Assembly: GCF_000003815.2 (NCBI RefSeq)
Contig: NC_049980.1
Coordinates: 2,083,727 to 2,147,726, forward strand
Source: Branchiostoma floridae
Lineage: Eukaryota; Chordata; Leptocardii; Amphioxiformes; Branchiostomatidae
Direction of reading: 5' to 3'
Length of the DNA stretch: 64,000 bases
The notes under the pieces were generated by a model that was not told the origin of the DNA, ran no database searches, and saw only the letters and a list, made by a program, of their open reading frames with translations. Below, piece after piece: positions 6,801-62,585 of the stretch. Numbering within the stretch: the stretch's first letter is position 1; every line of letters begins with the position of its first letter. The position numbers and the translations under genes are program-made.

Positions 6801-9800
6801 CTAATCTTTTGGACAATTTTTACTATAAACACAAGCATTCAGAGTCCTCTGTATAGTGACCATGTAGATCATTCTGTCTATTCCCTGATTGGTCTTCTGG
6901 GGTAGCTTTGACTGTATTTTGATTGGACGTACTTTGTGAGAAAAAAAAATTTTGGCTTGACTGTGTATGTGATCATTTAGAGTTGACTCCATAGTCTCCA
7001 CAGGCGTCCCTTTTGGCTTGGTTAGTGGTAAGCAAGCCAAAAGCTAAAGGGTGAGTCAGCAGTAACTATGGAGGATGGTACCTAGGCTACACTATACAAG
7101 GGCTAGACCGATAAAAACTGGACTTCTACAGAAAATCAACTTAATGTCCTTAAATCTTGCCCCCGACACAGGTGGTTCGTTCCCGACATCCCTGTCCAAT
7201 GACCCTGCCCTGGTGTTGGGGAACCGTTCCCGTACTCGGGACCGCTGGCTGGCCGCGCCGCGCGTCCGTTTGTACAACGTGCATCACGATGGCAAGGAGT
7301 GGTACAACAAGTTTGACAAGGTATGAGCACATGAGTATCATTCAATTACCGCGTAAATGCAGCATTGTTTGCATCAGTGGTCAGTCTTTGACACACGGTT
7401 GTAGCCAGCACCCGTCCTTCCGTCCAACGGAATTTTGCAGCTGGGGACGGAAAAATTTTTTGCCCATTCCGTCCTCTGTGAGCAAAATTTAACCCTTAAA
7501 ATGCAGGAAATAGCGTTTCAGAGGGTCTAGGTTTCAAAATTTTCCTTGGGAGCAATTGCCTCCGGACCCCCTAGGAACGCTGCACCAAAGCCATTCAAAA
7601 TGGAGGGGACGGAAAATGATTTCTGGCTGGCTACAACCCTGCTTTGACATATTTGTTTTTGACTTGAAGGAATTCTTTGTTAACAGGTGTCGCAGGAACA
7701 CCGTGAATACTACAAGGACAAAACAGGAACCTCCAAGCGAGTGACTTACTTCCATCTCCCTACAAAGGCAGAGGACAGCTTCCGTAAACTCCCGCCCATG
7801 TAAGCATGTCCGCAGTTGTGATTAGTGCTCTTTGAACTTGCACTGTTCTTTTTATTTAGACTTGGTTTCTTATTTGCTTTGTTACACTATTTTTTGTCAC
7901 TTCTGACCACCCTGTCATGTAAAGTCATCTGAGCTGAAGCCTACAGTTGGTAATTTTGTAGATTATTTTGGATCCTTTACTGAACTGAAGAATAGTGTTG
8001 TAGTGGTATATTAATTACTTTTTAAGCAGAGTTTTGCCTCCGGCTTGATCTGGATGTCTTGTCAGACATTTTTTTATGTTGTTGGCTAATTTTTTGTATT
8101 ATTCTTTTTTTCTATACTGCTACTGTTAGTCAGTACATACTACAAAAAAAAAAGGAAAAACTGACAAAAACAATAAGCCAGTAAACCTTTTTTTAAGCCC
8201 AAGCCTTAACCTCTGCTTGTAGAATATCCTTATGAATATCAAGGAATAAGGCAAGGAACAAAGATGACCAAAGATGACAATGACCTGTCAAGTTTAGTGA
8301 AACTCACATCCCTTTCCTTTACTTCAGGGTTTTTCTTGCTCATGAACTGTATGATACACGCCTGGTGTACTCTTCTGGTGTATTTTTTTGCTAACGCTAG
8401 TTCACATTTGTTTGAGGGGTAACCTATATCTGTTGCTTTTAAATATAGGATATTTATTAATACAAAACAAGTTGGCGGACGGCTGTTTGCTATATTTTTT
8501 ATATATTTATATTTTACGACTTGAATCAATATCCCTGGATACCCTGTTTAAGAAATAAAGGATATAGGTTACCCATCGGATAAAGGTTACCTAGCATTAC
8601 ATATTTCTTTCTAACATTAAACTTAAAATGCACTTAGTCTGTTCTCAATGAAATGTGCAAATTACCAATTCTTAGGTTCTGAAATAGATCAGTTCATTTT
8701 TCAGGCACATCTACATTACTTTTTGTGAAAATATTTCCATGATTATCAAAAAATGACACCGTATGACAAGAAGTTTGGCACCATACTTAGTCATTACGTC
8801 TTTTCGAAGACAGGTGTAACTAATCTGTTGAATATGAAAAGTGCTCTGGAAAAACGAAAAAGAGCAATGATGGTATGGGCCTGCAAGTTGGTTCATATCA
8901 TGACTCATAAAGGCTGGCGACAGCACTCTGCACATATCAGTGAGAATGACTCAGTGAGAATTATCTAACATGATCTTGGCTACTATTGGTTGGTGTGATC
9001 TCAATAACCACTGTGTGGTGTGTATTTTCTCACGGTGTGTGTTTGGTCTCCCAAGTGGCATGGGGTCTCGTCCCGAGTCACGCACTTTCTCCCCGAACAA
9101 CTCAGTATCCTGGTAACTGGTTCCCATGGTAACACAGGTAAGGTTGTTCCCATACAGCCCGCTCATCATCATCATCATCCTGCTGCAGCAATCTGACCAA
9201 TCAGTGCATGGCTTATGTAGCTTTATGTTCCAATCATCATCATCATCCTGTAGCAATCTGACCAATCAGTGCATGGCTTATGTAGCTTTATGTTCCAATC
9301 ATCATCATCACCTTGCAGCAATCTGACCAATCAGTGCATGGCTTATGTAGCTTTATGTTCCAATCATCCTCATCATCATCCTGTAGCAATCTGACCAATC
9401 AGTGCATGGCTTATGTAGCTTTATGTTCCAATCATCATCATCACCTTGCAGCAATCTGACCAATCAGTGCATGGCTTATGTAGCTTTATGTTCCAATCAT
9501 CCTCATCATCATCCTGTAGCAATCTGACCAATCAGTGCATGGCTTATGTAGCTTTATGTTCCAATCATCATCATCACCTTGCAGCAATCTGACCAATCAG
9601 TGCATGGCTTATGTAGCTTTATGTTCCAATCATCCTCATCATCATCCTGTAGCAATCTGACCAATCAGTGCATGGCTTATGTAGCTTTATGTTCCAATCA
9701 TCATCATCATCCTGCAGCAATCTGACCAATCAGTGCATGGCTTATGTAGCTTACAGTTTAGGATCCGATCATGGCTTTGAAAACAGGGTACATGAATCCC

Positions 9801-29288: not shown

Positions 29289-32200
29289 TTACATTCTGAA
29301 GAACGTTGTCAGCTTTTTCTGTCCAGTGAGCAGGGGAGCCACTTTCTTCTTGGACTTTGTAGCTGCAGGCTTCTTAGGCTTCTTGCTTGGTGGCTGAGAA
29401 GAAGCAGTTCCTCCATCCTTCAGTTTTCTCTTCCCGGAGTTCTTGGTTGAGGGTTCTCTGTCAAGGTTGACATTTTCCTGGTCATCAGCTGATTCTAGAA
29501 TCTTGTTGATGAGGTCTTTTCTCTTCCTCTTCTTTTCTTCTTCGTCACACTGCAGATTATCCTCTGCTTGCAGGATGTTGGTGGGAGGAGCTTGAGCTTG
29601 GATGATATCATGATTGACAGGTGAGTAGTCCACATGGATCTCCTCCTTGTTGTTGAGTGGACTAACTGACACAGCTGGCATGGCCCAGGTACAGTCCGAC
29701 TGGTACCTAGGCACTGCTAGCTTCTGTAACAAATTGAACCATTGTAAGCATTTCATAACCCTTCCCAGGCCTTCCTAAGGGGTAGTAGAATTTGGCAAAA
29801 ATAGGATGAACTAAAAAATGTAGGGTGTATCCCCCACAGTAAATTTGCCTTTTGTCGAGCTACTCGCACACAATACTATTACTAATTTAAGCTTGCCAAT
29901 GAGGCGTTGGCAAATAAAATAGGCTCACCCATGAGGTGTCGCCAAATATGACAAGAAGAATAAAGAAAGAGGAACACCAGCACAAACAATATGTTTTCCT
30001 TATGGGAAACATAATGATAGAAGAGTGAGGCCACAGTAAGGGTAATGTGTGGCAAATGAAACCACAAGGTACTCGTACTCCCCTGGTGAGTTAATCTCCA
30101 TACAGCCAGCATAGTTAGTCTGGGTAGAGACAACCTCTGTTCAGCATCTAACAGAACTAAACCATTCAGAACTAGGGTGCATACTTAATGGCGTATGACA
30201 TGCAATTTCAAATATACGTCTTTGGTATACAGTCTAGTAGTAGTCCACTGTGTATACCATGGTATACAGTTTCAGAGAGGAAAAATCAAGACATTTAACC
30301 TTTAAAATGTATTTCATGGGTCAAACCAGGGATTGCAACAATTGTTCTTAATGTAACTTTTATAAGAAAAGATGCTGATATGAATAAGATATCCAGAGAT
30401 GAAACCAGACTACCACAGGGCAGAATTCAAGGGCATTGAATCATAGAGCAAACAAACCTTATTGTTCAGTTCCTTCATTCTCTGCATAGTTCTCTGAAGC
30501 AAAGGAGTGTCTTCTCTACTTTTCTCTGTCTCTGTGTCAGGAGACCTGGTGTTGGGATAACATATGAGATATCAGATTATGAAGGATGAGCGGTTAAGGT
30601 GTGGTGACATTTGCACAATTTTGCTGCTGTAGAATTTTCAAGAAGGCTGTGAGAGGAGGCAGAAATCAAACATTTCCTTTTCTTAACATAACATAACATA
30701 ACAGTTACATTTTGTTGGTCGGCAGGAATACATGGACAAATTTTTGACAGCTGTGCACTCAGTGTAGCCAAAGTACATTTGAAATTTTGAATGATTCTAT
30801 CAAAGCCCGGGGCCATGTGATGCAAGTAGGAGCCTATGTCATAACCAAAATATCACCTTGTCCAGAACACCCGTATCGAATGTTATCACGGCCCGGGTAT
30901 TACATAACAGAGCGTTATCTTGGTCCAAGTGTGACATAAATGTAAAATATACACTCGTTACAGACCTGACCAATAAGACAAGTTCCTATTGTAAGCTCGA
31001 CATCACATCACAAGCATCCTCCTGCGCAGGGACATCCAATGGCAAAATCACCTATCTGGATGTACCCTGCTTTCTCAACAGTCACCCTTAGTTCCTGACC
31101 GCCCTGCTTATAAATATTCTGTTTCACGAGCTTACTCTTATACACGCAAGATCCCTTTTGAAAACTTAAAGGCCTATTCTCTGATTGGCTGGTTTGTGGC
31201 GACGCCCACAGTAGCTAAGAGTGACCGTTGAGAAAGCAGGGTACATCCAGACAGGTGGTTTCCGAGTTGGATGTCCCTGCGTAGGAGGATGGTCACAAGT
31301 GACCTAGTTATCATAGGTGATAAGTACCTGAACTGTGAGACAAGAGATGGGATCCTGACAGGGGTGCTCTGGCTGGTGTACACATCACTCAGCACCTCCA
31401 CAACATGGCCGACACTGGGCCGCCCGGCCTGTCTGTCCAGGTACAGCTGGATGAACCTGCTCACATCTCTCCCATACACCGAGCCACCGCTGCCTGGGGA
31501 CTGCAGTAATGTGGTGTTTAGAACATGCCACGTAGAATACAAGCATAGAACATGCCACACAGAATACTAGCATAGAACATGCCACACAGAATACTAGTGT
31601 AGAACATGCCACACAGAATACCAGCATAGAACATGCCACACAGAATACCAGCATAGAACATGCCACACAGAATACCAGCATAGAACATGCCACACAGAAT
31701 ACCAGCGTAGAACATGCCACACAGAATACCAGCATAGAACATGCCACACAGAATACCGTAGTGTAGAACATGCCACACAGAATACTAGTGTAGAACATGC
31801 CACACAGAATACCAGCGTAGAACATGCCACACAGAATACCAGCATAGAACATGCCACACAGAATACCGTAGTGTAGAACATGCCACAACTGGATATGGTT
31901 TTGGAAACGGTCAGACATTTCAACTACTATATATATCCAGCAGTTTTCATCACTAGTTAACTACTGGATAGTAGTTGAAATGTCTGACCGTTTCCCAAAC
32001 CATATCCAGTTGCATGAGTAACTACGTTTTGGCGTATCTTATTACCTGGATGTCTAACCTACATCAACGCGTTTTCCAAGAACTATCATACTATTCATAG
32101 AGTGGAACTTATCGCCACCAAGTACAGTATTCAGTAGAAGCATCCTCACTATACAGCTTTAGACAATAGTTGCAGTCAGATGTGCAAAGATTACGTGTAG

Positions 32201-41799: not shown

Positions 41800-42680
41800 T
41801 GGCTCATAACTATCTGTATCTGTATCTATATAGCCGGTATAACCGCCGTTCGGCGTAACACACCAGCTTCGCAGGCACGCGGCGCGGCAGCAGCTGGTTA
41901 TATTACACCGAACTACTCATTACACCTACCTTTTGCACATATATCTGCAAGCGTTCTTTAAAACTACCAAGAGAAGATGCCCCTACTGTACTTGGTGGTA
42001 ACAAATTCCACTCTACGATAGTTCTGGGAAAGTACGAATTTTTGAACACATCAATCCTAGGTTGGTAACTCTGGTATTTGAATGCATGACTGTTTCTTGT
42101 TCTTTTTTGAGCTGGTATTAGATACTTATCAGTTGGTACGTCCACCAGTTTATTGGTCATTTTGTACATCATGGAAAGTCTGGACATTTTCCTTCTATCT
42201 TCAAGTGACATCCACTGCAAATCTGTTTTCATTTTGGTAACACTAGAATCCCTGTTATAGTTGTTTGTGCAGAATCGGGCAGCTTGGTTCTGTACCCTTT
42301 CAAGTTTATCTTTGTCTTTCTTTGTATACGGGTCCCATACTGTAGCGGCATACTCAAGGTTAGGTCTTACTAGTGACGTGTATGCAAGTGATTTTACGCT
42401 GGCTGGGCATGCCCACAAGTTACGTTTGATTACTCCCAATGTCTGTTTAGCCTTGGTTGTTATTTTGTTAACATGGACACCCCACTTCAGCCCAGTTGTT
42501 AATGTAACACCCAGGTATGGGTAGGTTTTTGTGGTTTCTAATGTCTGACCACAAAACTGGTAAGGGGACACTTTTGGTGTTCGTTTGTTCGTTATGTGCA
42601 TGATATAGCACTTATCAGGATTGAACTGCATAAGCCATTTCCTTTGCCATTCTTCCAGGGTGTTCAGATCTACAGTTAAT
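41800..42680 (-). mobile_element. 5'-truncated CR1-like LINE with intact 3' part
   Basis: The minus strand from 42680 to the stop at 41903 is one uninterrupted frame of about 255 codons. It contains the FNPDKCYIMH block after the reverse transcriptase, YLGVTL, NLEYAATVWDPY, and IVEWNLLPPSTVGASSLGSF near the end. It is followed by the 3'UTR block AATATAACCAGCTGCTGCC and a short GATACA-type tail near 41806-41832. The lack of stops over this length suggests a recent insertion. The upstream part of ORF2 is missing. Confidence 0.88.
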
Positions 42681-42689
42681 GATGCTAAT

Positions 42690-43480
42690 CTCCAAAGTTA
42701 AAGTGTGCATGGGTATGTGATGAGTATGGCTTTTACAATCGTTGGGCGAATTCCCAACGTGTAAACAATCTTTAATACAGTTTCCTAATAGGAATAGATA
42801 CTTCATTACTCGCAGACGACGGCTGTACCAATGATTGGCCAACTGTAGAAGTAACAACGAAATGTAAGAAAGGGTCGATGTTGTGGCCCCAGGTTCTTTA
42901 GAATGCTGCACGAGGAACTTTTAAACTACAGGACTAAGAAACACGTACAAGACACAGGTTTGACATTGACACGAACGGGAGCTGCTGAGTTGGGACCCTC
43001 TCTCTGTTCTCTGGCTCAAGCCTCTCTCCCACTGTCTTCCAACTCAACAACCCACTGCTCTTTATTTCAAAATCCCAGACACATATGCAGACACTGTCTG
43101 CTGTCAATGTATATGACAATAATTATGACAGGTACATGTCACCGCTTCGGTAGTTTGTCTCATGCTCATTGCTTCAAAGGATAGAACAAAAGGTAACGCC
43201 TCGTTAGCATTAATCATACAACAATAGCGCTATAGCAGACAGAAACACATCTGGCCACGGAGACGCTCTCCTCAGACAACATACACTATATATAGTCTTG
43301 TTGTGAAGTACGACAGGGCACCACGATTTGTGGTTTGGATAATGGTCCTACTCGGCCGGCTGACTCCCCTAGCGTACTATTGACTCTATTTGTCCAATTT
43401 CTACAATCAGACCACCGAACCACGGAGCCTGGTAGAGGCTAGCTAAAATTATGCCCACGACAAATTATTCGCCCATTTCT
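42690..43480. other. Intergenic, upstream of SLC24A5
   Basis: No exon recognised. GC content and CpG rise from about 43250 toward the SLC24A5 start. Confidence 0.4.
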
Positions 43481-43710: not shown

Positions 43711-46700
43711 ATGGGAGAGTTCCGGACCGCTTTAAACAGACCAGCACCGCCCGGCCGATGGAATGTCATCGCAGGTGTGTTTTGCCTCACCTGCGTGCGT
43801 TCGGTGACACAAGGAGCCCCTGTGCAAGACGTCAACCCAGGTCTTACCCCGGCCCTTGGATTCGCAGGTGGGTCAAATTTTAAGAAGCTGAAACAGTGAC
43901 GTTCTAAAAATGATCAAGCGAGAAATGCGTCAGACAGACAAGTCAACGTGTTGACGAACTTTGATACCGCATATAACGTTATAACAGTTGTGTCTGACGT
44001 TATGCGTTGGTGTGCACTCTCTGAAAGGTACATGTACACCATGACTATGGCATGTTTTTTCTTGGACAGACCTGAAACATCTAGCCTGGGTCCCATCTTT
44101 GTTGGTTGGTTAGGAAGGCGCCCGGGCTAGAAATATCTTTGATTCTCCCACCATAAGGCGTTTGTCTAATCAAGGACTAATGAGTCTTTCTGTGCCAGGC
44201 ACCGGGAGGCCTGCCCACCCTAACCTGGGACCTCAAAGCTCTCCCATCCCCCACACCCCACGATGCCCCTATTTGGAGGGTAACCCCCAATGTAGATGTA
44301 GATGATGCGTCAATAATTGAAACTACACGTATTAAGTGAGAACCTGACATGCATCAAACATGTTGAAATAAACATGCTACACTACACTACAAGTGAACTT
44401 TGATACCACACATAGAATAACGCAATGTTGTTTTTGTTTGCTCCGTATCTCTACCTGTGTCATATACTTCAGGCAATATTGTCGGCTATTGTTATTATTT
44501 TCTTGATGAAGCAGACAAGTTGTCATGACAAGAAATGTAAATCACATTTCTAAATATCACTGATCCACTGTGACATAACACAGTGAAGTAAAAGTTGACG
44601 AACGACTTTTTCTGTGTAAAGTGTCCGGATCCAACTGTAATGTCCTTCTTAATCTTTAATTTCTTGTAGTTTGACAAACCTTTTCGTGGTATGCACCTTG
44701 AATGAGTGATTTCATTTCACACATAGTTATCACGGTGCTTGGGCTTGCCTTGCCGCTCGTAATAAAAATAAGTGGTTCTCGCCTTGTTATGTTACGTCGA
44801 CGGGCGGTTGCACCGGTAGCATAGCACTGAATGACACAAACAACATACAAATGTACACAATAGGTGATACAGCCAAGGGTGTACCTTTGACCCTTCACCT
44901 TTGGGGGTCCAAACCACAAGGCTGACGACTGTGCGTGACCTTGAGTCTGTGACCTGTCATGTTACCTGTTGTTCCACCTGGCTGTGTACAGAACAACTGG
45001 CGTTAGTCACCGTAAACTTGTACATGTGGCGTTCAACTTCCTCACATGCCTTAAGATCTTAAGACACAACCTGAAATCAGTGTGACCATGGATCACCTGT
45101 TGACGTACTCAGGTGAGTTAGTAAGCTTCTGATGACTGACGAAAGAGGACTCAGTATAGTCGTTTAGAGCCGGGTCTGCCATTGTTTACGACGGAGGAAC
45201 CGAACTGAGAAGGGTTTCCCATTTATTATGCAAACTGCCCCGCTTCGAGGAGGCGCAAAACTCATTCCAAGGCGAACTCCTTCGTCGGCAAACTCCCTTT
45301 AACGCCATTAGAGAAATGAGCGAACGTTGAAACTCGTAAACCAGCACCTGCGACAGAGGATAGTGAAACTCTGGTTTCGGATTCTATACTGTACGCCGGC
45401 GCCAACTGAGTTTTTCCGAGTGGTGAAACGACATCTACCCTATTCTGTTCTCCCCCTCTTGTTGACTTGTTTTCACCATATTTCTACAATTTGCAGGGCG
45501 CAGGCTGGGTTTCTCGGCGGCGCATAACGACTGCGTGCCGCCTGCTATAGAGGAGTTTCCCGCGGACTTCATGACCCAGTACCAGCGGCTGCACCAGGCG
45601 GGAGTCACCATCCACCTGCTGGTGTCGTGCTACATGTTCCTCGCCATCACACTTGTCTGTGATAACTATTTCGTACCCGCATGCGAGGCCATCAGCTACC
45701 GTGAGTACTGAGAACCTTCGTTAGGTTTCATTTTAAACATAACGACATTTTGTTTGTTTGATTCAATTCAGATCTCCATTAGTGACTAATGTCACTATTC
45801 TTCCTGGAGTCCGGGTGAATAATTTAAATCACCGTATGGCTGACGTGGGTCCATTCGGGTGATTTGAAGTAAAACACCAACTCCAGATAGAATGGTTTGC
45901 ATCATATTCTAGTTTTGGGGTAACAATACGTCCCCTTGACAACTTAATGACAGCAGGTAAATTCTATTGCTTCTCTAATTCTATAAGAGATGATGAAGTG
46001 AGCCGTATCCTTACATCTGCTTGAATTGGGAAACACCAGAACCATGGTCACCAACATCAGCCACCAGTCCTGTATGCTGCAAAACCCTAACCTTCTAGCA
46101 AAATCCTAACCCTTAGCAATCTCCAAATGAACCTACAGGGACAAATAATAAATTGCTAGCCATGTTTATCTGTTTGGAGATTTAAGCCAGGCAAAACCCT
46201 GCAGAGGTTTGGAGCTGGCTAACGCTGCATGTATCCCAAATATCTCCTTGGAAATCACATGACTCCTAGTCTCTACCACTCACCTTTGGTTGATGATGAT
46301 TAATAGAAAAGAGTTTCTCTCAGAAATGATTTGCCAATCAATCGTAGAGCCACACCGTGAGTAGGGGAGTCAAGTACCCCCGGGCCCCGGTATTAAAGGA
46401 TGACATCACATTTGCAAACTTGGACCCGTCGGCCGGGCTGTCTGTGGAAATGAAGAATAGAAATGTATTCGTAAAATATACGCAAAAAAACTCCAACGGC
46501 TATTCTCTTTACGTTTTGTGTAGTTTGATGTCTTTTGATATCATGATTTGAAGTGTGACTAACCAACTGTGAAGGGTTTTGTGTTGGTGGATTAGGTAAG
46601 CAAGTAGCGTTTCTGCTAGGCGTTCGAACCCCAGCGATAGAATATGACTTTGGAATTGGGACCGTACGGTTGTGCAGGAAAAGGTAGCGCTCGTGTTTTC

Positions 46701-49700
46701 TGCCGAAGTTCAAGTTCCCTAACCCTGCATAGGATATCATACGATTTGGCGTCCACCGACCCTCCTGGTGATTAGCACAAAATGTTCGTGGTTTAAGGCC
46801 GAGTTCAATATCAATTTCATCCCCAGGAGTTTTTATTTTGTGCTTGTCAGGCTTCACAGCAGACACTTCCGGGTTACGTCATGTTGGGAGAGACCATTGT
46901 TCCCGCGCGGGGGTTGCCTAGTCTCGCTTATCATTCTTTTTGTGAATCATGTATTTATATGGGGGGATTTGGTGGTCCCAAAAATTGCGCCCGACCCACC
47001 GGCTAGCGGCAGGCGACGCGGTAAAGTGTTGGTGCAGGTGTCAGCAGAATTACCCTCACTTTGCGTTCATTGGATAATTGCTCACCCCCTGACAAAGACG
47101 GTTGGCCCTGCCGTGCGCGCATTTTGTTTAGATACGTACTAGGCGTAAGTTTTGTTTGTGGGTAGAAGAAACGTAATACGCCATATAAAGCACCTACATC
47201 CTTTGTAAGTTCACCTGTAGATGATCCACACAATGTGGATAAGTTTATTGTAAACTTAAACTCATTTGGCAGTCGCAAATTTTATAACAATGGACCTAAA
47301 GTGACTAGTAGACACTTGTAACATAAATTATGATAATGAGCCCGATTCACTACTATTTTTGGCTAACTAACCTTGCTTATCGATTATTTATAACTCATTA
47401 ACCAGATAGATCAATTCAAAATTACAAATTTGAAGCTATGACGTGACACATCACCTTGTGTGTACGCGGGACAAACCATTTGTGAGGCGGGGAGGGAGTT
47501 GTGCAATGCTGCCTTGGCTACTAGTATTATTAAGGAGAAATAAACATGTCCTTGCTTAGGCGAATGAATTCCATATTGCTGTTTTGCCTTGGGCTTTGAG
47601 ACGTTCCTTCAAAAACTTGTAATTACAAGACACGGTCAGTCGTTATGATAAAGCTCCATTCGTGCTTGTGTCCAGTCAACCGTGCTTTAAATTTAATCAT
47701 TGCGTAACCATTGCGTATGTTTTCTAAAATTTAGTATCGTGAGAACATTATCAGTGCGCCCTAGATTATGCTAGCGATGACAGCGGACGTATTTTATAGC
47801 ACACGTCATTTGTGCATGTAGATGGACAGAACAACCAAATAAATTAGTTCCTTTGGTTCCCACCTGTCGTTATACTTATACATGTACATTTTGTAACGTT
47901 TGAATGTGCATCAAGGCAATGCATTAACATGGCATTAAATGATTAATTGCTTCAGATGTCGTAAGAGAGACCTCGGGCGATATGTTTATGAATGACAACT
48001 CGCAGTGGAACCTTGGCGCAAGGAGTGAGAGATCAAGGAAAGTAACCTCTTCTTATCAAGCGCAGATGTGAGCTCACGTTTTTTTTTCACTCTAGGACTG
48101 GGACTACAAGAGCATGTGGCCGGTGCCACTTTCATGGCAGGGGGGAGCAGCATACCGGAGTTGGCCACAGCGTTCATCGCGGTGTTCTTCACTCAAGGTG
48201 ACATCGGCGTCAGCACTATAGTGGGCTCCGCTACTTACAACATGCTGGGCATCATAGGGTTCAGCGGGATAGCCACGGGCATGGTACCGGTCACTCCTTA
48301 CTTGTCTTTGCTTCTCTTCCTTCCTACGGCCAATCAGACTGTTCATTTTCATCGCTAACTCATATATCATGCATGCGAACAATCTGTTCAGATTGCAATT
48401 ATAACACGACGATGTACGGAGGAAGCACGTGTATGAAATGGCATGTATATTATACTAATGGTGTATATCGTGTTATAGCGACTCGTCCGTTACTACACCC
48501 GTAAAAAAAACGAGTGAGCGAAGCGGACGAGGTGGGTTTTATGAGGAAGTAATGGCTGGTTGGTCACCAACCCTTAATTACATTGAATAGGACAGACTTT
48601 GGCACCCTCCATGCACATTCCCGCATTTTGGCGACGCACTCAGGGAGAGAGCGTGATATACATGTAGTATACCATACACCCAGTTGAAGAAATTTTAAGA
48701 AAATGAGATTTTTCCTGTTCTTAGGTGGTGTACCTGTCGGTGTGGCCGATCTTCCGGGACTGCACGTTTTACGCGCTCAGCATCGCCATTCTCATAGCTG
48801 TCATCTCGGACGGGAAGGTTTACTGGTGCGTACAGGGGCTGGGGATATTGGAGGGGGTTAGAGGGGACATGAATATCCAAGCACATATTAGGAATAATAG
48901 GACCCTGCATTCCCTCACCTATAGCTTGATAATCATAGATGACATTGGTGAATTCCTGAATTAGTCTCTAAACCCACACGAGCTAAACTGGTTCACTTTC
49001 CCCCAGGTACGAGGCGTCCATGATTCTGCTGCTGTACATTGTTTACATCGTTGCCATGGTGTTCGACACACGACTGCAGACCGCCGGCTCTACACTTGCA
49101 CACAAACTACAGTAAGGGAACGGGAGATGTTCTTGTTGTTATCATTTATATCATAATCGGCTACTTTTGTTTTCATTGTAATGTTATTTTTTTAACGAGT
49201 TTGTTCAAAGGAAGGTCACAAAACCACTTCAAGGCAATAAAACTGTGTACGGAGATAGTGGTGGACATTTGTTTTAAAGGCTGATAAGTTCAGGTATCGT
49301 CGAGAGAGTTCCATGATTTTAGAAAGAAACTGTTCGGCAATTGAACAGTAAAACGTTTGTTGGAATGTATTTTTAGGCTTCTTCCATTTGACTCAAATTT
49401 CACGAAGCTCATTTTTACAAACCCTCATTTTATCGATGATGTTTTTCTAGTCTGGTCAGCAGATTCGGGAGGCCGGAGTCGGACCGGGAGGAGAGGACGT
49501 CTCTGATAGCGCGGGACGACAAGGAGGACAGTCTGTCCCACTCGTCCGACTCCGGATACGTCACGCCAAGAATATACACTCCGGAATGGTTAGATTCAGG
49601 TAAGGATCCGGATACGTCACGCCAAGAATATACACTCCGGAATGGTTAGATTCAGGTAAGGATCCGGATACGTCACGCTAAGAATATACACTCCGGAATG

Positions 49701-52334
49701 GTTAGATTCAGGTAAGAATCCGGATACGTTACGCCAAGAATATACACTCCGGAATGGTTAGATTCAGGTAAGGATCCGGATACGTCACGCTAAGAATATA
49801 CACTCCGGAATGGTTAGATTCAGGTAAGGATCCGGATACGTCACGCTAAGAATATACACTCCGGAATGGTTAGATTCAGGTGAGGATCCGGATACGTCAC
49901 GCCAAGAATATACACTCCGGAATAGTTAGGTTGAGGTAAGGATCCGGATACGCCACGCTAAAAATATACACTCCGGAATGGTTAGATTCAGGTGAGGATC
50001 CGGATAACGGTTACGCCAAGGGTATACATGTACACTCCGGAATGGTTAGATTCAGGTAAGGCTCCGGATTCGTCACGCAGATGATATACACTCAGGAATG
50101 GTTAGATTCAGGTAAGGATCCGGATATGTTACGTCAAGGGTGTACATGTACACTCCGGAATGGTTAAATTCAGGTAAGGCTCCGGATACGCCACGCAAAT
50201 AATATACACTCCGGAATGGTTAGATTCAGGTAAGGATCCGGATATGTTACGTCAAGGGTGTACATGTACACTCCGGAATGGTTAAATTCAGGTTAGACTT
50301 CGGATACGCCACGCAAATAATAACGGAATGTTCTGATTCATATAAGGTTCAGTATACGCCGCGCCCGTGAATGGTTAGACTTGGGTACGAATCTGTGGGC
50401 GGGGCCGTTACAGATTTTTCCACACCTGAAACTCATTGCTCGACCCCGTTAGGTCAAGTGTCCACGTATGGGTCAGTTTTTCTGAGGTAGGCTTTAGTGA
50501 CAACGAAAATTCGTTTTCTTTGTGTTCAAGAATTTTTACTCTATGACAATAAAGGATTATGTCGTAAAACTTTTAAGTTGTTCATTATTCTTAAACATGG
50601 CTTTCTTTGATCTCATGTCTGACGGTCAGAGCCCGAGTCGTTCTTTGAGATGCCAGAGTCTGACGTAAAGCGGATATTCTGGGTGCTGGCCCTCCCCACC
50701 AGCGCCTTGCTGTACCTCACGGTCCCGGACTGCAGACAGAAGAGGTGGCGGAGCTGGTTTCCCGTCTCCTTTGTCCTCTCCGTGGCGTACATAGGCGGCA
50801 TGGCGTACCTGCTGGTGTGGATGGTCACAATTATAGGTTCGTACAAGGAGGTTCTTTTTTTAACCTCCTTGGTTCGTATTACATCAACTTCAGGTAACGC
50901 TGGTTCACCTTTATCCGATGGGCACCTAAATCCGTTGTTTGTAGATTTAGGGATGAGTCGACGGACGGTGGTTTCAAATCAGAAAAAGTTGAAATATTGC
51001 AAATTTGAAACCACAGTCCGCATGTTTAATACTCCAAGATGTGCTGTTTTTAAAGACAACGGATAAAGGTCACCCCGTGGATAAAGGTGAACTAGCGTTA
51101 TATAGCATACAGCATCAAGCATCTCTTTACTACACTATTCTTTTGAAACTCTTTTTCCATCGGTTGCATAATTTGTGGATATACCACTTTTGAATCTCAA
51201 TCTATGTCTAACTTCTCCCGTGATCTCAGCAATATTGCAGCGTTAAAAGTGGGCATATTCTGGATGAGGAATCTGTATAATATTGACATCTACTGCACTG
51301 TATTCCCATATTTACATCATTACTTCATCATTTCAGCGGTTAAAAACGGCCCAGAGACAAGCCACACGAGGATATTCCTTATCATCGGAACCCAAAAAAT
51401 TAGGCCTTGATCAGGAATCCTCGTGCGACTTGTTTCTCCGCCGTTTTTAACGGCTCAATTTATGAAATGAGGTAAATGTGCTAAATGGTGCATTAGACGT
51501 CAATATTATGCAGATTGCCTTACACAGATTATCCACTTTCAACGATGTAATATTGCTTAGGTTGCCTTGGAGGTTCAAACCTATTCTGTTGTCTCCTGTC
51601 CAGGCTACACATTCGGCATCCCCGACACGGTGATGGGTCTGACGTTCCTGGCGATCGGCACCAGCCTGCCCGACACCGTGGTCAGCGTGCTGGTGGCCAG
51701 GAAAGGTACGGCAGGACACCGGGACTTTTCTGTAATTGTTACGGTACAATTGGCCAGGAGATAAATATTTGTTTATCCTTGGCTGTTGAAAAAAAGGGCA
51801 TGACAGTGCACCTGTCAAGTTTAAATTGATAGTTAACCGTTGAATTAGAAGAACGGCGCCCACCAAAGTTTCATCATTTATTTACTCTGAAACAGAAACG
51901 AGGAATCTATCTATCTATCTATCTATCTATCTTTATCTCTATGTGTCGATAAATCAATTGATTGATTGATTGATTGATCGATTGCTTGGCATTGTCCCGG
52001 TCCAGGGCACGGTGACATGGCGGTCTCCAATGTGGTTGGCAGCAACATTTTCGACATGTTCGCGCTGGGCCTGCCGTGGTTCATCATGACCGTGATGGTG
52101 AAACCGGGCAGCTGGATCACCATCAACAGCTCCGGTATGCTGTTCACCGCGCTGTCGCTGCTGTTCGGCATCGTGCTGGTGCTGGCCGCTGTCATGCTGT
52201 CTGGCTGGCAGCTGAACAGGAGGATGGGCACAGCCTGTATTGCTGTGTACGTGGTGTTCGCCCTCTTCGCCTGTCTGTACGAGACTGGAGTGTTCGGAGA
52301 CTTCAACCCCGACATCTGTCCGATAGAGGCGTGA
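43711..52334 (+). CDS. SLC24A5: SLC24A5 (NCKX5)-type K+-dependent Na+/Ca2+ exchanger, 9 coding exons
   Basis: Exons 43711-43867, 45497-45700, 48096-48283, 48725-48825, 49007-49111, 49451-49599, 50630-50836, 51604-51705 and 52006-52334 join in phase to 513 aa (human 500). NCKX proteins trade Na+ for Ca2+ plus K+; SLC24A5 acts in intracellular membranes and melanosomes in vertebrates. Exon 1 gives a leader with a hydrophobic [11 protein letters not shown] stretch. The alpha-1 repeat has [19 protein letters not shown] (129-147, key Glu142). The cytosolic loop is acidic and Ser-rich (about 240-285). [10 protein letters not shown], and [20 protein letters not shown] (377-396, key Asp394) with [15 protein letters not shown] form alpha-2. 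DTVMGLT, KRIFWVL and WPIFRDC favour NCKX5 over NCKX1-4. The exon 3 donor is GTACCG. An alternative first exon lies at 45088. Confidence 0.9.
45088..45112 (+). other. Alternative first coding exon of SLC24A5
   Basis: ATG plus eight codons (MDHLLTYS) end with one base before a GTGAGT donor, the same phase as exon 43711-43867. Using it gives 469 aa without the leader. Which start is used cannot be settled from sequence. The 43711 exon gives the length closer to the family. Confidence 0.4.
49551..50370 (+). repeat. 56-bp minisatellite made of an SLC24A5 exon end and its splice donor
   Basis: About 14 copies of a 56-bp unit run from the last 49 bp of exon 6 into intron 6. Each unit contains the exon end (CACTCCGGAATGGTTAGATT), the donor CAGGTAAGGATCC and GGATACGTCACG. 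Later units diverge, some with GTGAGG donors. 56 is not a multiple of three. Reading past the first donor meets TAG in the second unit, so only the first donor keeps the protein. Confidence 0.92.
50895..51100. mobile_element. MITE, TAACGCTAGTTCACC family
   Basis: TAACGCTGGTTCACCTTTAT at the left and ATAAAGGTGAACTAGCGTTA at the right, an imperfect inverted pair. The interior also pairs (GGTTTCAAA/TTTGAAACC). In SLC24A5 intron 7. Confidence 0.75.
51228..51562. mobile_element. About 335-bp foldback in SLC24A5 intron 7
   Basis: The two arms of about 150 bp pair imperfectly. The outer part is GCAATATTGCAGCGTTAAAA against TTTCAACGATGTAATATTGC. The inner part is AAAACGG..CAGAGACAAG and CACACGAGGATATTCC against GGAATCCTCGTGCGACTTGT. 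Confidence 0.75.

Positions 52335-55360: not shown

Positions 55361-62585
<7,225 letters not shown>

What the first reader, a model, noticed from the sequence alone, without database searches (positions are those of the whole stretch)
49551..50370. Splice donor amplified as a minisatellite in SLC24A5
The repeat unit of 56 bp spans the exon 6 / intron 6 border, so about 14 near-copies of a working donor (CAGGTAAGGATCC) sit in a row. Only the first keeps the protein frame; using the next one adds 56 nt and hits a TAG. The array could tune splicing efficiency, act as decoy donors, or create regulated nonsense transcripts.
Basis: partly seen in the sequence, partly recalled or inferred. Interest (0 to 1): 0.72.

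Follow-up and report, generated by a model that had tools for sequence, protein, structure and literature searches.

The report
Amphioxus splice-donor repeat array ("mirage")
In a lancelet sodium/calcium-exchanger gene the end of one exon, with its splice signal, has been copied about a dozen times into the next intron; this is a known lancelet oddity, and a genome count suggests that it occurs at many genes.

Summary
A 56-bp unit (last 49 nt of an exon plus first 7 nt of its intron) is repeated at 49551-50322, with decayed copies to about 50387. Twelve GTRAG donors result, one real and 11 decoys, not 14. Every decoy leads to the same TAG after 264 of the model's 460 codons. A regulatory role is not supported: the donor 9-mer is no better conserved than the rest (rank 27 of 48 windows).

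It fits the amphioxus "mirage", a minisatellite-like duplication of an exon/intron border, described in Adh3, TnC, globin and PGBD5 genes and reported not to disturb splicing (passages of PMC3087553, PMC3902484): a new member of a known kind.

The wider result: triple tandem CAGGTAAG has 1593 overlapping matches in this genome, its backward pattern 10, though single copies are equally frequent (9 versus 8 in 182 kb). The first 100 matches form 12 loci, 4 of one dispersed family. Of the other 8, 6 start at an exon's donor, 1 is acceptor-side, 1 is cut off. A second, acceptor-side mirage lies 5 kb downstream.

The parts
49451..49599 (+). Exon 6 of the model, ending ...[15 protein letters not shown] with CAG|GTAAGG
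   Evidence: Acceptor TTTTTCTAG, donor CAG|GTAAGG, in frame with seven other exons
49551..49606 (+). Unit 1: 49 nt exon end plus 7 nt intron start, the real donor at 49600
49607..50348 (+). Units 2-14 inside intron 6; GTRAG decoys at 49656, 49712, 49768, 49824, 49880, 49936, 49992, 50056, 50112, 50174, 50230; GTTAG at 50292; broken at 50342
   Evidence: TRF
49999..50348 (+). Alternating long (62-64 bp) and short (56, last 50 bp) units: a two-unit higher-order repeat
   Evidence: Units 9-13 are 0.91-0.97 identical at i,i+2 and 0.71-0.74 between neighbours; unit 14 is diverged
50365..50387 (+). Remnant of a further unit
   Evidence: Local alignment score 24, 0 of 200 shuffles as high
50630..50836 (+). 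Exon 7, joined to exon 6 in frame only from donor 49600
45497..52334 (+). Exchanger gene model: exons 45497-45700, 48096-48283, 48725-48825, 49007-49111, 49451-49599, 50630-50836, 51604-51705, 52006-52334
   Evidence: One frame of 460 codons ending in TGA; Pfam Na_Ca_ex, 2 stretches, E 2.5e-54. First exon(s) not located

Best explanation
This is a mirage: a minisatellite born by tandem duplication across an exon/intron border. Each new copy carries exon end plus donor and lands on the intron side of the first donor. If the spliceosome keeps using the first donor, all extra copies leave with the intron and the protein does not change. The array is then sheltered from selection and can grow, shrink and decay at its far end. 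Shown here: the anatomy, the gradient from near-identical units beside the exon to degenerate units at the far end, no extra conservation at the donors, and many similar arrays at other exon borders. Inferred: use of the first donor in vivo, and slippage or unequal exchange as the way of growth. The excess of tandem donors in the genome suggests that the border is a preferred place for array birth or retention; the cause is open.
For: Unit = exon end + donor, first copy in frame. Identity to unit 1: 0.93-1.00 in units 1-8, 0.70-0.95 in units 9-14. Donor 9-mer conservation rank 27 of 48 windows in units 1-12, 25 of 48 in units 1-14. Same anatomy in published amphioxus mirages (passages). 1593 tandem-donor matches against 10 for the backward pattern; 6 of 8 fetched arrays begin at the donor of an open exon. 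A second border array in the same window.
Against: No RNA was seen. The decoys match or nearly match the real donor in U1 pairing, and donors 1 and 2 share 72 nt of context, so leaky use of decoys is plausible. In other systems SRSF1 favours the intron-proximal of two donors (PMC5585400, passages), which would favour decoys. In L035 the frame-keeping donor is weaker than its decoys (-7.7 against -11.5). The human IFI6 minisatellite is said, by title, to provide multiple donor sites.
Confidence: 0.85

Rival explanations
1. Leaky multi-donor use: several donors are used in every tissue, giving a steady fraction of transcripts with the TAG that are removed by NMD; a cost, not a switch (IFI6-like).
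For: Decoys are as strong as the real donor and share its context. IFI6 title. Intron-proximal preference under SRSF1 (passages).
Against: Published amphioxus mirages are reported not to give aberrant mRNAs (passages).
Confidence: 0.25
2. Regulated nonsense switch or donor-strength tuning: the array is kept because decoy use lowers or adjusts exchanger output.
For: All 11 decoys give one and the same TAG, and later exon junctions would allow NMD (and established rule).
Against: Donor columns not more conserved than the rest. Similar arrays at unrelated genes. In-frame stop before donor 2 in 5 of 6 other arrays too, so the stop is not special.
Confidence: 0.06
3. Intron-gain or recursive-splicing nursery: the AG|GT in each unit serves as both acceptor and donor, so parts of the array are spliced stepwise or may become new exons.
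For: Each good unit ends ...TTCAG|GTAAG; duplication of AGGT is a proposed route of intron gain (passages of PMC3443670), and PMC3087553 proposes mirages as intron source.
Against: The unit lacks a long pyrimidine tract before its AG (sequence); no RNA seen.
Confidence: 0.05
4. Assembly artefact: the array or its length is wrongly assembled.
For: Exact copy number was not checked.
Against: Units differ in substitutions, indels and two-unit order.
Confidence: 0.03

Closest known systems
Amphioxus mirages (Adh3, TnC, globin BflGb6/BflGb9, PGBD5)
   Same: Tandem repeat that spans an exon/intron border, with duplicated splice signals and unit divergence (passages of PMC3087553 and PMC3902484).
   Different: Another gene; 56-bp unit, about 14 units, donor side. 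BflGb6 units are 150-160 bp and 3 or 6 in number, on the acceptor side.
Human IFI6 (6-16, G1P3) minisatellite
   Same: A minisatellite that gives multiple splice donor sites (title of the 1995 paper, seen in a reference list).
   Different: There several donors are said to be used; here use is unknown. The paper itself was not held.
Intron gain by tandem genomic duplication of AGGT
   Same: Duplicated AG|GT at a border, tolerated because splicing removes the copy (passages of PMC3443670).
   Different: Here an existing intron grows; no new intron is seen.

Membership tests
Amphioxus mirage | Tandem repeat whose unit spans an exon/intron border | tested here: met
   49 nt exon + 7 nt intron per unit
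Amphioxus mirage | Splice signals present in many but not all copies | tested here: met
   12 of 14 units GTRAG, 1 GTTAG, 1 broken
Amphioxus mirage | Cephalochordate genome | tested here: inconclusive
   Assembly size and 19 large contigs fit B. floridae as recalled; no call names the organism
Amphioxus mirage | Regular splicing is not disturbed | not testable with these tools
   No RNA data
Amphioxus mirage | Length instability between alleles or individuals | not testable with these tools
   One assembly only; alternating two-unit order suggests past turnover
IFI6-type donor minisatellite | Several donors of the array used in mRNA | not testable with these tools
   No RNA data
Selected regulatory donor array | Donor columns more conserved than the rest of the unit | tested here: not met
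   Rank 27 of 48 nine-column windows in units 1-12, 25 of 48 in units 1-14
SLC24A5 (NCKX5) | Na/Ca exchanger domains | tested here: met
   Pfam Na_Ca_ex, 2 stretches, E 2.5e-54
SLC24A5 (NCKX5) | Closer to SLC24A5 than to other SLC24 members | not tested
   Likeness is recalled; the own-genome protein search did not complete

The most novel reading that the evidence does not exclude
Splice-donor borders are a genome-wide hotspot of minisatellite birth or retention in this amphioxus: about 190-210 loci by extrapolation from 12 loci in the first 100 of 1593 matches (about 130-140 without a dispersed family that makes 4 of the 12). The excess over the backward control is about 160-fold in matches, and of the order of 100-fold in loci by the same extrapolation against 2 control loci, at equal single-copy frequency. 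A mechanism tied to the border itself, such as transcription- or splicing-linked damage in the germ line, would make splice junctions mutagenic sites, and the arrays natural tests of how the spliceosome picks one of many identical donors.
Probability: 0.35. Interest if true: 0.78.

Novelty: new member of a known kind. Interest (0 to 1): 0.45.

Why it matters
As a single locus it is one more mirage. Two things go further. First, donors 1 and 2 are identical over 72 nt, so if donor 1 is chosen the choice must rest on position or order of synthesis, not on local sequence; twelve donors in a row make a natural test of 5' splice-site choice. Second, the strong excess of tandem donors suggests that exon/intron borders are where this genome makes or keeps minisatellites, which bears on intron growth, allele length diversity and intron gain.

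Tried and rejected
RNA structure hiding the decoys: 280 nt, z -1.07; 950 nt, z -4.12 on 20 shuffles. The unit holds the self-complementary TCCGGA twice, so a repeat of it folds well by construction; not used as evidence.

Selection on decoy donors: not seen.

Transposon origin: the DNA search found the unit only at its own locus (only best candidates are scored). In the C1 list one 51-bp family recurs, by eye, at 4 of the 12 loci, so those 4 are not independent.

Acceptor motif: tandem TCTTTCAG gives 55 matches, its backward control 10. By eye many of the 55 share a few dispersed units, so no acceptor-side excess is claimed, and the 55 show that an 8-mer can reach tens of matches without being a donor.

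Random sample: 20 stretches of 10 kb (18,160 N) gave 17 arrays, none with MAGGTRAG and none with the reversed motif. This neither supports nor contradicts the genome count: at about 200 loci in 513 Mb less than one is expected in 200 kb.

Ciliary genes looked frequent among the fetched arrays (axonemal dynein twice, TMEM237, SPATA7). This is post hoc, L032, L037 and L038 lie within 24 kb of each other, and L034 is cytoplasmic dynein. The planned test with a second donor motif (CAGGTGAG) and a scrambled control (GGACATAG) did not complete, so neither exists as evidence.

Gene paralogs: protein query did not complete.

Papers: PMC3087553, PMC3902484, PMC2572611, PMC5585400, PMC3443670 and PMC2206037 were seen as passages only. 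The 1995 IFI6 paper and the 2002 Adh paper are not held (one search used a PubMed id that was off by one). Searches are listings; I saw no genome-wide count of mirages in them, but for most papers only title and start of abstract were seen.

Full report
What is there. The window lies at C2:2083727-2147726 of a 513.4-Mb assembly of 431 contigs. Size and the 19 large contigs seen (17-35 Mb) fit Branchiostoma floridae as recalled; no call names it. TRF finds a 56-bp array of 13.4 copies at 49551-50322. A model of eight exons (45497-52334) reads as one frame of 460 codons ending in TGA; the first exon(s) and start codon were not located. It matches Pfam Na_Ca_ex in two stretches, E 2.5e-54. The likeness to SLC24A5 is recalled, not tested. 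Exon 6 ends at 49599 with CAG|GTAAGG, and the array starts 49 nt before that point: the unit is exon end plus the first 7 nt of the intron.

Frames. Of 14 aligned units, 12 carry GTRAG, one GTTAG, one is broken. Joining exon 6 to exon 7 from each of the 12 GTRAG donors gives the full protein only for the first; the 11 others stop at the same TAG after 264 codons, 9 to 583 nt before the exon 6/7 junction, before the best Na_Ca_ex stretch at residues 293-441. Further junctions lie downstream, so NMD is possible (established rule, not tested).

Strength and context. With a simple U1 duplex energy (11-nt U1 end, recalled) the exon 6 donor scores -11.5 kcal/mol and the 11 GTRAG decoys -10.1 to -11.6; the six other donors of the model score -4.1 to -7.2. 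Twelve of the 33 GTs at -10 or better on the + strand of the 64-kb window lie in the array. Donors 1 and 2 share 49 nt upstream and 23 nt downstream without a difference, so local sequence cannot separate them.

Age and selection. Units 1-8 are 93-100% identical to unit 1; units 9-14 are 70-95%. From unit 9 on, units of 62-64 bp alternate with short ones: neighbours among units 8-13 are 0.71-0.74 identical, units two apart among units 9-13 are 0.91-0.97. A remnant reaches about 50387. The donor 9-mer ranks 27 of 48 windows for conservation in units 1-12 and 25 of 48 in units 1-14, so no selection on the decoys shows.

What it is. [quoted passage not shown] PMC3902484 (passage) adds TnC and PGBD5. 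The structural features that I could test are met here; splicing and allele length could not be tested. The human IFI6 minisatellite with several donors (title in a reference list) is the nearest case outside amphioxus that I know of.

How common. A pattern of three CAGGTAAG copies with gaps of 21-51 nt has 901 + 692 matches in the genome and the backward pattern 8 + 2 (searches agree). In the 20 sampled stretches (181,840 bases without N) the two 8-mers occur 9 and 8 times, so single-copy frequency does not explain the gap. Matches overlap within arrays. The 100 listed places, all on C1 between 0.2 and 29.2 Mb, fall into 12 loci, 4 of them by eye one dispersed 51-bp family. The 10 control matches lie in 2 loci. 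Scaling 12 loci by matches or by length gives about 190 to 210 loci, or about 130 to 140 without the dispersed family; this extrapolates from part of one chromosome. One more motif pair, TCTTTCAG and its backward form, gave 55 and 10 matches, so the background of an 8-mer may reach tens of matches. Two further queries, a scrambled control and CAGGTGAG, did not complete. A random 200-kb sample held 17 arrays, none with the donor motif, as expected at this density.

Where they sit. I fetched 8 of the 12 listed C1 loci, leaving out the dispersed family. Six begin at the donor of an open exon (read by eye): L032 (dynein AAA_8, E 1.7e-10), L033 (no Pfam or PDB hit), L034 (cytoplasmic dynein 1 heavy chain in the PDB, E 3.1e-13; no Pfam hit), L035 (SPATA7/HSD3, E 3.6e-5, below its curated cut-off), L036 (TMEM237, E 3.5e-18), L039 (TPR, Pfam E 0.0021, below the cut-off; PDB engineered TPR E 3.3e-10). 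L038 proved to be an acceptor-side array of an exon on the other strand (PDB axonemal dynein, E 7.3e-12; Pfam dynein stalk, E 0.0011, below the cut-off), with seven exact acceptor copies and three donor copies on its other end. L037 is cut off at its start. L032, L037 and L038 lie within 24 kb, so they may be one gene. In 5 of the 6 donor-side cases an in-frame stop precedes donor 2; in L034 it does not. In L035 the frame-keeping donor is weaker than most of its decoys, -7.7 against -11.5.

Second array in the window. A 33-bp array at 55676-56112, read on the minus strand, repeats a pyrimidine tract ending in AG. Of 13 tracts, 6 end in CAG or TAG and 7 in GAG; the last is the acceptor of a minus-strand exon that reads [14 protein letters not shown]... 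(PRRC1-like as recalled; no Pfam hit). A reading frame at 57605-57913 on the same strand gives Pfam NTPase_I-T, E 2e-5, 0.1 bit below its cut-off. The 27-bp array at 31519 and the 65-bp array at 9165 show no obvious border.

Judgement. The array is real and is best read as a mirage, neutral or nearly so as long as the first donor is used. Against that comfort: decoys are as strong as the real donor, and SRSF1 is reported to favour the intron-proximal of competing donors in human cells (PMC5585400, passages), so leaky decoy use remains a live rival. The regulatory reading has no support beyond anatomy. The genome-wide excess at donors is the part worth following; whether it reflects where arrays are born or where they are tolerated is open.

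Noticed in passing
window 55676-56112 (-): A second border array, acceptor-side: 33-bp units with pyrimidine tract and AG, the last being the acceptor of a PRRC1-like (recalled) exon. The unit is found at its own locus, plus one weak 69% match on C3.
   Followed up: partly
L038 1-900: A dynein exon bracketed by arrays at both ends: seven exact acceptor copies before it and three donor copies after it.
   Followed up: partly
L035 (minus strand): The frame-keeping donor (GTATGG, -7.7) is weaker than most downstream decoys (GTAAGG, -11.5), a sharper test of donor choice than the window's own array.
   Followed up: no
L032, L035, L036, L038: Several fetched arrays lie in genes of cilia (axonemal dynein, SPATA7, TMEM237), which might point to germ-line transcription; post hoc and untested.
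   Followed up: no
G000 C1:9479866, 20224899, 20226107, 29239706: A dispersed 51-bp tandem family with CAGGTAAG in each unit, at 4 of 12 listed loci; origin unknown.
   Followed up: no
window 41906-42697 (-): A 264-codon open frame that by eye resembles the end of a non-LTR retrotransposon reverse transcriptase; not searched.
   Followed up: no
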